Shown here one piece after another: positions 139-6,141 of a stretch of DNA of 6,141 bases (position 1 is the stretch's first letter; every line of letters begins with the position of its first letter). The position numbers and the translations under genes were made by a program. The stretch spans positions 1-6,141 of the forward strand of contig QMWA01000105.1 in assembly GCA_003661385.1 (NCBI GenBank). The letters run 5' to 3'. This DNA is from Thermoproteota archaeon. GTDB lineage: Archaea; Korarchaeota; Korarchaeia; B14-G2. Under the pieces are notes generated by a model. The model was not told where the DNA came from and ran no database searches. It worked only from the letters and a program-made list of their open reading frames with translations.

Positions 139-366
139 TTAGGACACTGTTGGGATGTTGGCTTCCCTGAGTAGCTCTCTGAAGCGTGCTATTGGCTGCT
201 GAGCTATTCTCGCAGCTATCCTTATGTCTCCTGTCTTGATGTAGTAGAGTAGTGCTGCCTTCAGTGGCTGAGGCTGCCTCTGTATGAAGCTCCAGTCAGC
301 ATGCTCCTCCCTTATACGCCTAGCCTCCTCCAACCTCCTCCTCCACTCCTCTAGCTTCCTCTCCAC
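139..366 (-). CDS. Antitoxin B: second, mosaic copy of the antitoxin downstream of the PIN toxin
   Basis: This is a 75-residue protein with a GTG start. A strong Shine-Dalgarno (GAGGTGAT, 373-380) lies 6 nt before the GTG and decides the start. The first 16 bases overlap the 3' end of the toxin gene. Residues 3-47 form a highly charged, probably helical region (Arg/Glu-rich, then a WSFIQRQPQP segment), identical over 45 residues to antitoxin A (904-1128). The last 28 residues align without gaps but only 9 are identical. The tail has the look of the C-terminal helix-turn-helix of UPF0175-type antitoxins (AARIA...FRELL...IP). The inferred role is neutralising the PIN toxin, or a lost or unseen second toxin, and perhaps binding the promoter. 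No toxin gene is recognisable after it in the remaining 138 bases. Real gene: likely. Family assignment: tentative. Confidence 0.75.
   Translation of the reverse strand: MERKLEEWRRRLEEARRIREEHADWSFIQRQPQPLKAALLYYIKTGDIRIAARIAQQPIARFRELLREANIPTVS
226..360. repeat. Direct repeat, copy B (5' half of antitoxin B)
   Basis: These 135 bases match 991-1125 with only two differences (position 271 A against 1036 G; position 352 T against 1117 C). Both are synonymous in the antitoxin frame. Identity drops abruptly outside these limits. The repeat covers the part of the gene encoding antitoxin residues 3-47 and runs into the toxin stop codon. Confidence 0.95.
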
Positions 367-914
367 TTCTCTATCACCTCTCTTATAGCCTCCTCTAGGT
401 CTCTCCTGGGGAACTTGTGCTTGGTCTCGTGCTCGTACCTCTGGAATAGGTGGAGTAGCTGGCTTCTAGTCTGGATTGCAGCCAGCTTTCTGGCGGCTAT
501 CTCCTTTAGTAGCTCTAGAGCCCGCCACACTTTGACAGCAGAGTACTCCTGTATCATGTCAGCTACCATCAGTGCTCCTGTGTTCTCTGTGAGGACGATG
601 TAGCCTTTCTGCTTACCTAGTGTGAGGCATAGTGCTTCAGGGATCTCTATCCTACGCATATGTGGCCTTGTGGCCACGAGCTCCACTAGCTGCTCTGCTT
701 CACGCCTCTTGTCTGGGCTTGGTGTGAACAGGGTGAAGTACCCTGAAGCCAGGTTGTCAGCTACCCACTCTACTGCTGGACTAGACCTGACTTCTGCTAG
801 CACATCCTCGAGGAGAAATACAGCTGAGAACACCTTTCTCATGAGGTCTCTGAGCGAGAAGCTCGCCCAGTCCAGTATGAAGCATGTGTCAGCTACAGCT
901 ATGCTATGCGACAT
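351..914 (-). CDS. PIN-domain ribonuclease toxin (VapC-like)
   Basis: This 187-residue protein is a probable Mg2+-dependent RNase toxin of a type II toxin-antitoxin pair. The PIN acidic residues are visible in order: Asp9 in AVADTCFILDW, Glu41 in LAEVR, Glu93 in IPEALCLTLG, and Glu110 in VLTENTGA, where many PIN proteins have Asp. The C-terminal about 60 residues are extra charged helices beyond the minimal 120-130-residue PIN core. ATG start; the first 11 bases overlap the end of antitoxin A, which is typical of translational coupling. The 3' end overlaps antitoxin B by 16 bases. Its TAG stop falls inside a Leu codon of antitoxin B. The target RNA cannot be told from sequence. The catalytic set looks intact, so it may be active. 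Confidence 0.85.
   Translation of the reverse strand: MSHSIAVADTCFILDWASFSLRDLMRKVFSAVFLLEDVLAEVRSSPAVEWVADNLASGYFTLFTPSPDKRREAEQLVELVATRPHMRRIEIPEALCLTLGKQKGYIVLTENTGALMVADMIQEYSAVKVWRALELLKEIAARKLAAIQTRSQLLHLFQRYEHETKHKFPRRDLEEAIREVIEKWRGS
373..380 (-). promoter_or_regulatory. Ribosome binding site of antitoxin B
   Basis: On the minus strand GAGGTGAT matches eight bases complementary to the archaeal 16S rRNA 3' end. It lies 6 nt upstream of the GTG at 366, inside the toxin's last codons. It supports separate translation initiation of antitoxin B within the toxin gene. It also encodes toxin residues, so chance is not excluded. Confidence 0.55.
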
Positions 915-1128
915 TGGGGATCCCAGCTTTGATCCTGAGCTTATTCATCTCGTCTAGAGTTAAGCCAGCTATCCTAGAGGCTACATACAGGTCTCCTGTC
1001 TTGATGTAGTAGAGTAGTGCTGCCTTCAGTGGCTGGGGCTGCCTCTGTATGAAGCTCCAGTCAGCATGCTCCTCCCTTATACGCCTAGCCTCCTCCAACC
1101 TCCTCCTCCACTCCTCCAGCTTCCTCAA
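904..1128 (-). CDS. Antitoxin A: first gene of the toxin-antitoxin operon
   Basis: This 74-residue protein starts with TTG; GAGGG lies a few bases upstream at 1133-1137. It precedes and overlaps the PIN toxin by 11 bp, the usual antitoxin-first order. Residues 2-46 are a charged helical region identical to residues 3-47 of antitoxin B. The C-terminal 28 residues (ASRIAGLTLDEMNKL...GIP) look like the helix-turn-helix seen at the end of UPF0175-type antitoxins; this assignment is by pattern only. By analogy with VapBC-like systems it should bind and inhibit the toxin and repress its own promoter. A TATA-like box lies at 1157-1164. It could also belong to a different archaeal antitoxin family. 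Confidence 0.8.
   Translation of the reverse strand: MRKLEEWRRRLEEARRIREEHADWSFIQRQPQPLKAALLYYIKTGDLYVASRIAGLTLDEMNKLRIKAGIPNVA
991..1125. repeat. Direct repeat, copy A (5' half of antitoxin A)
   Basis: Same-orientation partner of 226-360, offset by 765 bases. The two copies bracket nearly all of the PIN toxin gene. Homologous recombination between them would remove the toxin and leave a single hybrid antitoxin. Confidence 0.95.
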
Positions 1129-1156
1129 GGCTCCCTCTTAAGTGAGCAGCATGTGC

Positions 1157-1164
1157 TTATTTAA
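1157..1164 (-). promoter_or_regulatory. Probable TATA box of the toxin-antitoxin operon
   Basis: Minus strand TTAAATAA is centred about 33 nt upstream of the TTG of antitoxin A. With the usual archaeal TATA-to-start distance of about 26 nt, transcription would begin near 1134-1135, giving a leader of only a few bases. The flanking CTTAAATAAG is nearly palindromic. No clear BRE was seen. Confidence 0.45.
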
Positions 1165-1261
1165 GTGATGCCGTTTGCTTATGTAGCCTAGAGCCGCGGA
1201 ATACAAGGTGCTTGCAGTTAAAACAATCCCACAACTTGCCTCCAACAGGCGCTCCTAAGCC

Positions 1262-1643
1262 CTAGATTATCTTGAATTCTATTGGTGTCTTTCTTGGCCT
1301 TGTGGGGTGAACTCTATTTCCCACGAGTCTGTCTCTGGCCTACCTATTATCAAGTCCACACCCTTCCTAAGGTTCTCTGCCATCTCAAACCTAGCTCCAC
1401 TGGGAACTTCTACACCCTGAAACCTGACATACACGTTGCAGTATCCTGTCATCTTTAGTTTTCCTTCTTTGTCTGCTGTTTTGAGCTCGTATGGCTTTTT
1501 AGTGGGGTGTAGGCTCCTAGCTCTTCTGCTATCCTCCTTGATATCACGCTTCTGCTAGCGCCAGTGTCTACTAGAGCCTCCAGCTTGACAGCCTTTCCAC
1601 CATGCTCAAGCTCAACGTCAGCTGAAGCCTGCTCAGCTCTCAA
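1262..1643 (-). pseudogene. Retropepsin-like (clan AA) aspartic protease, broken by two frameshifts
   Basis: From the TTG at 1643 (AGGTG about 5 nt upstream) the first frame encodes the active-site segment LVDTGASRSVI, catalytic Asp26 in DTGAS, then runs to a stop at 1455. After an A5 run (1496-1500) the coding continues in another frame with KKPYELKTADKEGKLKMTGY, later DLIIGRPETDSWEIEFTPQG, and stops at 1279. A second shift near 1297-1299 restores the last residues PRKTPIEFKII and a stop at 1262-1264. DTG, IIGRPE.DSW and the PIEF end are what I expect of archaeal clan AA aspartic proteases of about 120-135 residues; the repaired protein would be about 127. Both lesions need one added base, so each is a one-base loss. 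It may be a decayed gene, a sequencing error in a homopolymer, or (less likely) a recoded gene. Confidence 0.8.
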
Positions 1644-5729: not shown

Positions 5730-5805
5730 CTGCTTCAGCTGCGCAGCAGAGGAGCATAGCTAGTAGCAGTGTGATGGTGGCTATGAAGGCTGAGACATAG
5801 GCTTG

Positions 5806-6141
5806 GTGAAGGGCTGGATAAAGCTACACAACAGAGGCAGAGCCAAGAGAAAGCCAGAGATAACAAGAAGAACAGTCTACATCAAGAGCACGCTGTTCAG
5901 GGTCAAGGGGAGCAAGCTCATCATCAGGATAGTCGCCAGGGAGCGTTACCTGGAGGTGGACCTGTCGAGGTTCGACTACCTGCCCAGAGACTACGACTCC
6001 ATCGGTGGCCTGCTGATGACCGATGACAGGCTCTACATCACGTTTAAGCGCTCTGCAGAGCCAAAAGAGCCCAAGGGGTGGTCAGCCTTCGACGTGAACG
6101 AGACTAACGTGACGGAGGCGAGGGACGGAGCTGGAGTGATC
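5806..6141 (+). CDS. TnpB/OrfB-type RNA-guided transposon nuclease, fragment (cut by window end, 5' truncated)
   Basis: One frame stays open from after a TGA at 5791-5793 to the window edge; the GTG at 5806 (or the TTG at 5803) is the first possible start. The 112 visible residues include KLHNRGRAKRKPE, a beta-rich segment around RYLEVDLSRFDYLP, SIGGLLMTDDRLYITFKR, then KGWSAFDVNETNVTEA. The last motif matches the RuvC-I strand of archaeal IS605/OrfB (TnpB) proteins, with catalytic Asp at 6091-6093 (residue 96 from 5806). In full-length relatives this Asp lies much deeper, so about 90 N-terminal residues appear to be missing. Upstream frames have several stops and no similar sequence. Codons ending in C are commoner than in neighbouring genes, suggesting separate origin. 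It is probably a decayed or truncated element. No TATA box was found at the expected place. Confidence 0.65.
   Translation, partial: MKGWIKLHNRGRAKRKPEITRRTVYIKSTLFRVKGSKLIIRIVARERYLEVDLSRFDYLPRDYDSIGGLLMTDDRLYITFKRSAEPKEPKGWSAFDVNETNVTEARDGAGVI

What the first reader, a model, noticed from the sequence alone, without database searches (positions are those of the whole stretch)
139..1128. Antitoxin-toxin-antitoxin sandwich operon
Seen: three overlapping minus-strand genes in the order antitoxin A, PIN toxin, antitoxin B; the antitoxins share 45 identical residues in a row. Known: VapBC-like operons normally have one antitoxin and one toxin. Inference: antitoxin B may be a second inhibitor of the same toxin, a regulator working on another promoter, or the relic of a second TA pair whose toxin was lost. 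Downstream of B (1-138) no PIN-like frame is visible, which favours an orphan or second inhibitor.
Basis: partly seen in the sequence, partly recalled or inferred. Interest (0 to 1): 0.7.

Follow-up and report, generated by a model that had tools for sequence, protein, structure and literature searches.

The report
Toxin between two half-identical antitoxins
This heat-loving archaeon carries a predicted RNA-cutting toxin gene sandwiched between two predicted antitoxin genes whose first halves are kept identical by gene conversion while their second halves stay different, and the same three-gene layout recurs in dozens of related archaea, so it is a conserved variant of a toxin-antitoxin system and not a one-off relic.

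Summary
A (904-1128), T (351-914) and B (139-366) form an overlapping minus-strand operon; A and B share 45 identical residues (134/136 nt). I collected 68 A-T-B loci, 64 with an unbroken T. In a toxin-first search of 398 genomes, 52 of 54 near-full-length T hits were sandwiched, so B is not a relic of a lost pair. In 52 non-redundant loci the N-terminal halves of A and B are 86% identical within a locus but about 60% between loci; the C-terminal halves do the opposite (44% within; A-A 64% between). Four-fold synonymous sites match 77% in the N-half and 37% in the C-half, with a sharp edge after a conserved Gly-Asp. That is intra-locus gene conversion, with selection keeping two different C-halves. 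Five orthologous sites show single genes with an A-like start and a B-type end, the product expected from recombination between the repeats. T models as a VapC-like PIN fold with four conserved acidic residues. A and B match paREP6, a PIN-associated antitoxin family predicted in 2009; I found no description of the sandwich or its concerted evolution. Likely mechanism (inferred): the shared half does a common job, probably toxin docking, and the C-halves differ.

The parts
904..1128 (-). A: first antitoxin-like gene (74 aa, TTG start), paREP6-like with predicted HTH; A-type C-half
   Evidence: A-type markers Tyr, Asn and Arg at alignment columns 44, 58, 61
351..914 (-). T: PIN-fold ribonuclease-like toxin gene (187 aa) with acidic residues D9, E41, E93, E110
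   Evidence: fold of two homologues matches VapC chains
139..366 (-). B: second antitoxin-like gene (75 aa, GTG start), B-type C-half
991..1126 (-). direct repeat copy 1: N-half of A (136 nt, 134 identical to copy 2)
226..361 (-). direct repeat copy 2: N-half of B
907..990 (-). A-specific C-half (helices 4-5 of the HTH region and tail), not homogenised
142..225 (-). B-specific C-half, not homogenised
1156..1165 (-). TATA-like CTTAAATAAG upstream of A, presumed operon promoter (by eye only)
   Evidence: sequence; similar A/T-rich elements upstream of A in other loci; not tested

Best explanation
A conserved three-gene type II-like toxin-antitoxin operon of Thermoproteota and Korarchaeia: antitoxin A, PIN toxin T, antitoxin B. 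SHOWN: fixed order; A and B are old paralogues with position-specific C-halves; their N-halves are repeatedly homogenised inside each locus by gene conversion, ending at a conserved Gly-Asp turn; recombination between the two N-halves has, at several sites, apparently left a single gene with an A start and a B end. INFERRED: the shared N-half (predicted helices 1-3) does a job that A and B have in common, most likely docking onto the same toxin, so copies can be swapped freely and must track the toxin together. The C-halves (the last two helices of a predicted HTH) do two different jobs, for example operator reading by one and active-site capping or a different half-site by the other, so conversion into them is purged. 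PIN toxins are commonly dimers, so a mixed complex with one A and one B per toxin dimer is the most likely form.
For: Sandwich in all full-length T homologues of the first sample and in 52 of 54 near-full-length T hits among 398 genomes searched toxin-first. N-half within-locus 86% against 60/58/59% between loci; C-half 44% within against 64% A-A. Best N-half match is the own partner in 81 of 104 genes, C-half in 3 of 104. Four-fold sites 391/505 against 111/304. Column identity falls from 0.94 to 0.19, 0.06, 0.06 at the Gly-Asp edge. In sister loci N-half sites are concerted and C-half sites orthologous, e.g. 20:0 against 1:8 and 22:0 against 3:13. Conversion is local: paralogous sandwiches of one genome share only 58% in the N-half. 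dN/dS mostly 0.02-0.2 for A, T and B. Natural T-B fusion in C154. A-T and T-B chains model at pLDDT 93 and 96. A-start/B-end single genes at orthologous sites.
Against: No biochemistry: toxicity, neutralisation and DNA binding are all untested. Mutual information in a shallow alignment did not favour the N-half as the toxin-contacting part, and A's C-half tracks T identity more closely (rho 0.63) than the N-half does (0.49), so docking through the N-half may be wrong. No shared operator was seen upstream of A by eye. Coordinates of the models could not be read, so contacts were not measured, and pTM of 0.77-0.79 leaves the A-T and T-B placement uncertain.
Confidence: 0.5

Rival explanations
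1. A alone neutralises T; B is a dedicated regulator (or the reverse), in the manner of three-component systems with a separate repressor such as paaR-paaA-parE or omega-epsilon-zeta. The N-half is homogenised passively because it is a shared dimerisation domain.
For: C-halves are strictly distinct by position; the differing part is the last two helices of a predicted HTH. The three-component precedents are named in PMC4526809.
Against: B is fused to T in C154, which suggests that B contacts T. Regulators in those precedents are, from general knowledge, not near-identical copies of half the antitoxin.
Confidence: 0.3
2. B (or A) is the leftover of a second TA pair whose toxin was lost.
For: Truncated toxins and single antitoxins do occur elsewhere.
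Against: Same A-T-B order in 68 loci, never A-T-B-T or two intact tandem pairs; C-half types conserved across loci; purifying selection on B.
Confidence: 0.02
3. The homogeneous N-halves are passive: short direct repeats 0.75 kb apart convert often in these archaea, and the identity has no function of its own.
For: Some loci have diverged N-halves yet intact genes (C154 33%, L146 58%, L127 69%), so identity is not strictly required.
Against: Most loci stay highly identical; the edge at Gly-Asp is uniform, so selection acts at least on the boundary. Compatible with the best explanation as to how conversion arises.
Confidence: 0.15
4. The repeats serve as an exit or entry device: recombination between the N-halves removes the toxin and leaves a single antitoxin, or a toxin cassette enters a single gene by homology.
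For: Five orthologous-site comparisons with A-like start and B-type end; toxin-less single genes inside contigs all have B-type ends, while A-type singles are followed by toxin remnants.
Against: The product follows from any direct-repeat deletion, so function is not implied; other decay routes exist (A plus T fragment, T fragment plus B). Direction of the events was not polarised.
Confidence: 0.1

Closest known systems
paREP6 family, PIN-associated predicted antitoxins (Makarova et al. 2009, PMC2701414; Pyrobaculum oguniense genome, PMC3558965)
   Same: Small HTH-predicted proteins next to PIN genes in Pyrobaculum, other Thermoproteales and Korarchaeum. Four hits in a 1,590,757-nt contig (G002) lie where Kcr_0407, 0470, 0472 and 0836 would by gene number; sandwich L146 (1,684,947-1,685,864 in a 2,436,033-nt chromosome) falls in the region 1,672-1,690 kb listed as paREP6 for P. 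oguniense.
   Different: The 2009 text describes association with a PIN gene, not two antitoxins flanking every toxin, the split between homogenised N-half and distinct C-halves, nor the single hybrid genes. I read the text only, not figures or supplements.
COG2886/UPF0175 antitoxin with PIN toxin
   Same: HTH antitoxin preceding a PIN gene; PF03683 matches 11 of 25 A/B members weakly (best E 8.8e-4).
   Different: Best E-values are weak; one antitoxin per toxin is the known form (PMC2701414).
VapBC
   Same: PIN-fold toxin with four acidic residues, small upstream antitoxin gene, overlapping genes; fold match to VapC (3h87_B, Z 12.8).
   Different: Two antitoxin genes around the toxin; HTH instead of the usual RHH/AbrB/Phd type; longer toxin (about 165-195 aa) with a C-terminal extension.
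SpoIISABC of Bacillus (PMC4526809)
   Same: One toxin with two antitoxins in one operon; B and C of one species resemble each other more than their counterparts (27% identity in B. cereus).
   Different: Unrelated families, order toxin-antitoxin-antitoxin, no near-identical half.

Membership tests
VapBC-type (PIN) toxin-antitoxin system | PIN fold of the toxin | tested here: met
   Models of two homologues (C192 and C154) match VapC chains with Z up to 12.8 and 12.6; the window's own T was not modelled but is 36% and 35% identical to those two
VapBC-type (PIN) toxin-antitoxin system | four conserved acidic active-site residues | tested here: met
   D9, E41, E93, E110 conserved as D/E in 47-50 of 50 T proteins; assignment to the PIN quartet is from general knowledge
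VapBC-type (PIN) toxin-antitoxin system | ribonuclease toxicity neutralised by the partner | not testable with these tools
   needs expression assays
VapBC-type (PIN) toxin-antitoxin system | one antitoxin gene per toxin gene | tested here: not met
   two antitoxin-like genes flank T in 68 loci
paREP6 (PIN-associated predicted antitoxins) | identity with the named family members | tested here: inconclusive
   genome lengths and positions agree in Korarchaeum cryptofilum and Pyrobaculum oguniense; named sequences were not compared directly
COG2886/UPF0175 | match to the Pfam model PF03683 | tested here: inconclusive
   11 of 25 members match, best E 8.8e-4; neither A nor B of the window does
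PF01850 PIN family | score above Pfam's cut-off | tested here: not met
   window T has no hit; 1 of 14 relatives at E 8.2e-4; the fold is PIN all the same
three-component TA with two antitoxins (SpoIISABC-like mode) | both small proteins bind and neutralise the toxin | not testable with these tools
   needs co-expression and pull-down

The most novel reading that the evidence does not exclude
A toxin-antitoxin system built as an exchangeable cassette: gene conversion keeps the two antitoxin N-halves recombination-competent and equally matched to the toxin, so the toxin can be dropped (leaving a working single hybrid antitoxin that prevents post-segregational killing) or regained by homologous recombination.
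Probability: 0.1. Interest if true: 0.8.

Novelty: new variant of a known kind. Interest (0 to 1): 0.62.

Why it matters
PIN toxin-antitoxin loci are abundant in archaea, and one antitoxin per toxin is the usual model. Here an obligatory second antitoxin, half kept identical and half kept different, splits an antitoxin by evolution into a shared part and two specialised parts. That gives a direct natural handle on which segment does what, and on how a toxin and two inhibitors evolve together. The apparent deletion products suggest a route by which toxin-antitoxin loci can disarm. It also explains why assemblies break at these genes.

Tried and rejected
Relic of a second pair: rejected. Purifying selection alone for the N-half identity: rejected because four-fold synonymous sites and concerted site patterns follow the same N/C split. 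Conversion among all copies of a genome: rejected, N-halves of different loci in one genome are only 58% alike. Assembly artefact: unlikely, since sandwiches lie inside complete single-contig chromosomes (G193, G235, G369, G424, G456). Toxin-antitoxin mutual information: too shallow and not supportive of N-half docking. Operator search: only looked at by eye, A/T-rich promoter-like elements, no common motif noticed. One alignment meant for folding put antitoxin rows onto the toxin and was replaced. Foldseek and VIA hits fell on the PIN part; the antitoxin fold was barely tested. No relative in PLSDB plasmids, and none confirmed in IMG/VR (pattern-based, so weak). Control in the same genome: 10 of 11 ordinary PIN loci tested show no homologous ORFs on both sides; the window itself was missed by that script's ORF filter, so the control is weak.

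Full report
WHAT IS THERE. The window is the whole 6141-nt contig C105 of an archaeal draft genome of 206 contigs. On the minus strand three genes overlap: A (1128-904), T (914-351), B (366-139). A and B share 45 identical residues and 134 of 136 nucleotides. The match starts a few codons into each gene and ends exactly after a Gly-Asp pair. Pfam, NCBIfam and PADLOC give no family for A, T or B of the window above their cut-offs; relatives of T match PIN models weakly, and relatives of A/B match UPF0175 weakly.

THE SANDWICH IS THE RULE. Searching 61 relatives with T, and the GTDB-based contig collection, gave 14 full or nearly full T homologues, three of them in this genome (C105, C192, C154). 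All 14 have an A before and a B after. An antitoxin-profile search of 398 further genomes found the family in 56 of them, and a toxin-first search of the same number found T in 40. I fetched about 110 loci in all and recovered 68 A-T-B sandwiches, 64 with T in one frame. Of 54 T hits covering at least 150 of 185 model positions, 52 are sandwiched (my count from the tables). One exception has its contig ending at the first codon of T (G270:C50); the other is an A plus a T with an internal stop (G235:1660459). Gaps are tight: median 7 nt between the A and T matches and 19 nt between T and B. dN/dS is mostly 0.02-0.2 for all three genes in close pairs, so all three are maintained.

HALF SHARED, HALF DIFFERENT. 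In 52 loci with T less than 80% identical to one another, A and B of the same locus are 86% identical in the N-half (alignment columns 7-42) but only 44% in the C-half (43-70). Between loci the N-half is 58-60% identical whichever genes are compared, while the C-half is 64% for A-A, 45% for B-B and 41% for A-B. The best N-half match of a gene is its own partner in 81 of 104 cases, the best C-half match in 3 of 104. Judged by C-half, the nearest gene in another locus is of the same position in 100 of 104 cases. Column by column, within-locus identity is 0.94 at the Asp and 0.19, 0.06, 0.06 in the next three columns; A has Tyr, Asn, Arg at columns 44, 58, 61, B has Arg at 44.

GENE CONVERSION, NOT ONLY SELECTION. 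Four-fold degenerate sites of matching codons agree in 391/505 cases in the N-half and 111/304 in the C-half of the same gene pairs. Among sister loci the N-half shows the concerted pattern (copies agree inside a locus and differ between loci) at 20 sites against 0 orthologous ones in L030/L031, 22:0 in L126/L130, 12:0 in L152/L163 and 33:0 in C192 against the window, while the C-half shows the reverse (1:8, 3:13, 0:21; for C192/window 2:2). Paralogous sandwiches within one genome are no more alike (58%) than sandwiches of different genomes, so conversion runs inside the locus. Not all loci are homogenised: C154 (33%) and L146 (58%) have diverged N-halves. Assemblies break here: contig C29 ends, and C39 begins, with the same 105 nt of N-half, with upstream sequence on one side and a B-type C-half on the other. 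I infer a fourth sandwich in this genome whose middle contig was lost.

SINGLE HYBRID GENES. At five orthologous-site comparisons a single antitoxin stands where a relative has the sandwich: L204 against L151, L189 against L142, L199 and L201 against L178, L200 against L170. Flanks match upstream of A and downstream of B. The first residues match A (for example VEEFRRYFEDMEEARRV) and the C-half matches B (L189: 81/81 nt against B, 47/79 against A). That is the product expected from recombination between the direct repeats. Toxin-less singles inside contigs all carry B-type C-halves, while A-type singles are followed by T remnants. Direction was not polarised, so insertion into a single gene is not excluded. 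Other decay forms exist: A plus a T fragment (L038, L040), T fragment plus B (L183, L188).

STRUCTURE. The A and T genes of C192 lie in one frame with one TAG between them; read as one chain and with relatives as alignment it models at mean pLDDT 93.2, pTM 0.77. The natural T-B fusion of C154 models at 95.9 and 0.79. Both toxins have the PIN fold (best VIA match 3h87_B, Z 12.8, 2.9 A over 122 residues). D9, E41, E93 and E110 (window numbering) are D or E in nearly all of 50 T proteins. The antitoxin is five helices; the Gly-Asp edge falls between helix 3 and the last two helices, which would be the helix-turn-helix pair of the HTH predicted for this family. I could not read coordinates, so contacts are not reported.

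WHAT IS KNOWN. Makarova et al. 2009 (PMC2701414) describe paREP6, distantly related to COG2886/UPF0175, often next to a PIN gene, expanded in Pyrobaculum and present in Korarchaeum cryptofilum as Kcr_0407, 0470, 0472 and 0836. In G002 (one contig of 1,590,757 nt) my four antitoxin hits lie at 417, 481.6, 482.4 and 845 kb, as those numbers predict, the middle two being the sandwich L035. G193 has the exact chromosome length of P. oguniense (2,436,033 nt), and sandwich L146 lies in the region 1,672-1,690 kb listed there as paREP6 (PMC3558965). So the antitoxin family and its PIN link are known as predictions. In the open-access text that I could search I found no statement of the sandwich, the concerted N-half or the hybrid singles. 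Subscription papers, figures and supplements were not read. Other systems with two antitoxins or three components are known (SpoIISABC, PMC4526809).

HOW IT MOST LIKELY WORKS. Shown: architecture, conservation, conversion, boundary, hybrid singles, PIN fold of homologues. Inferred: that T is toxic and A and B neutralise it; that the shared N-half docks to T; that the C-halves do different jobs (DNA reading, capping); that a mixed T2AB complex forms. Two results cut against N-half docking: mutual information does not favour it, and A's C-half tracks T identity best. Hence confidence 0.5 in the mechanism, but above 0.9 in the architecture and the conversion.

Noticed in passing
L045 (C192) 499-510: T of this sandwich has no ATG, GTG or TTG start: it begins right after the TAG of A, in the same frame (CTG CTA GCC...). 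CTG start, stop read-through, or a decayed start.
   Followed up: partly
L045 (C192) 1285-2322: B is followed directly by a 345-aa ORF that by eye resembles a nucleotidyltransferase (MNT) joined to a HEPN-like part, another TA-type module.
   Followed up: no
L039 / L046 (C154) 948-1673 minus: Natural fusion of toxin and second antitoxin in one 241-aa frame, with diverged N-halves of A and B.
   Followed up: yes
window 1279-1643 minus: Retropepsin-like aspartyl protease (Asp_protease_2, E 6.5e-7) split over two frames: a frameshift or a decayed gene upstream of the operon.
   Followed up: no
window 5803-6141 plus: ORF running off the contig end; by eye like the N-terminal part of a TnpB-type transposase protein; no Pfam hit.
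   Followed up: no
L146 (G193:C1:1684200-1686600): The sandwich lies about 0.5 kb from one end (1,686,376) of the polymorphic C8 inversion reported for Pyrobaculum oguniense (PMC3558965).
   Followed up: no
L033 (G027:C126), L032 (G026:C32), L051/L053 (C29/C39), L052 (C168), L048 (C76), L206 (G270:C50): Contig ends and an N-gap fall in or next to the antitoxin N-half, a sign that short-read assemblies undercount these sandwiches.
   Followed up: partly
L013 (C33): An ordinary PIN locus with a small ORF before it whose homologue (54% over 46 aa) lies about 0.9 kb downstream; perhaps another TA pair.
   Followed up: no
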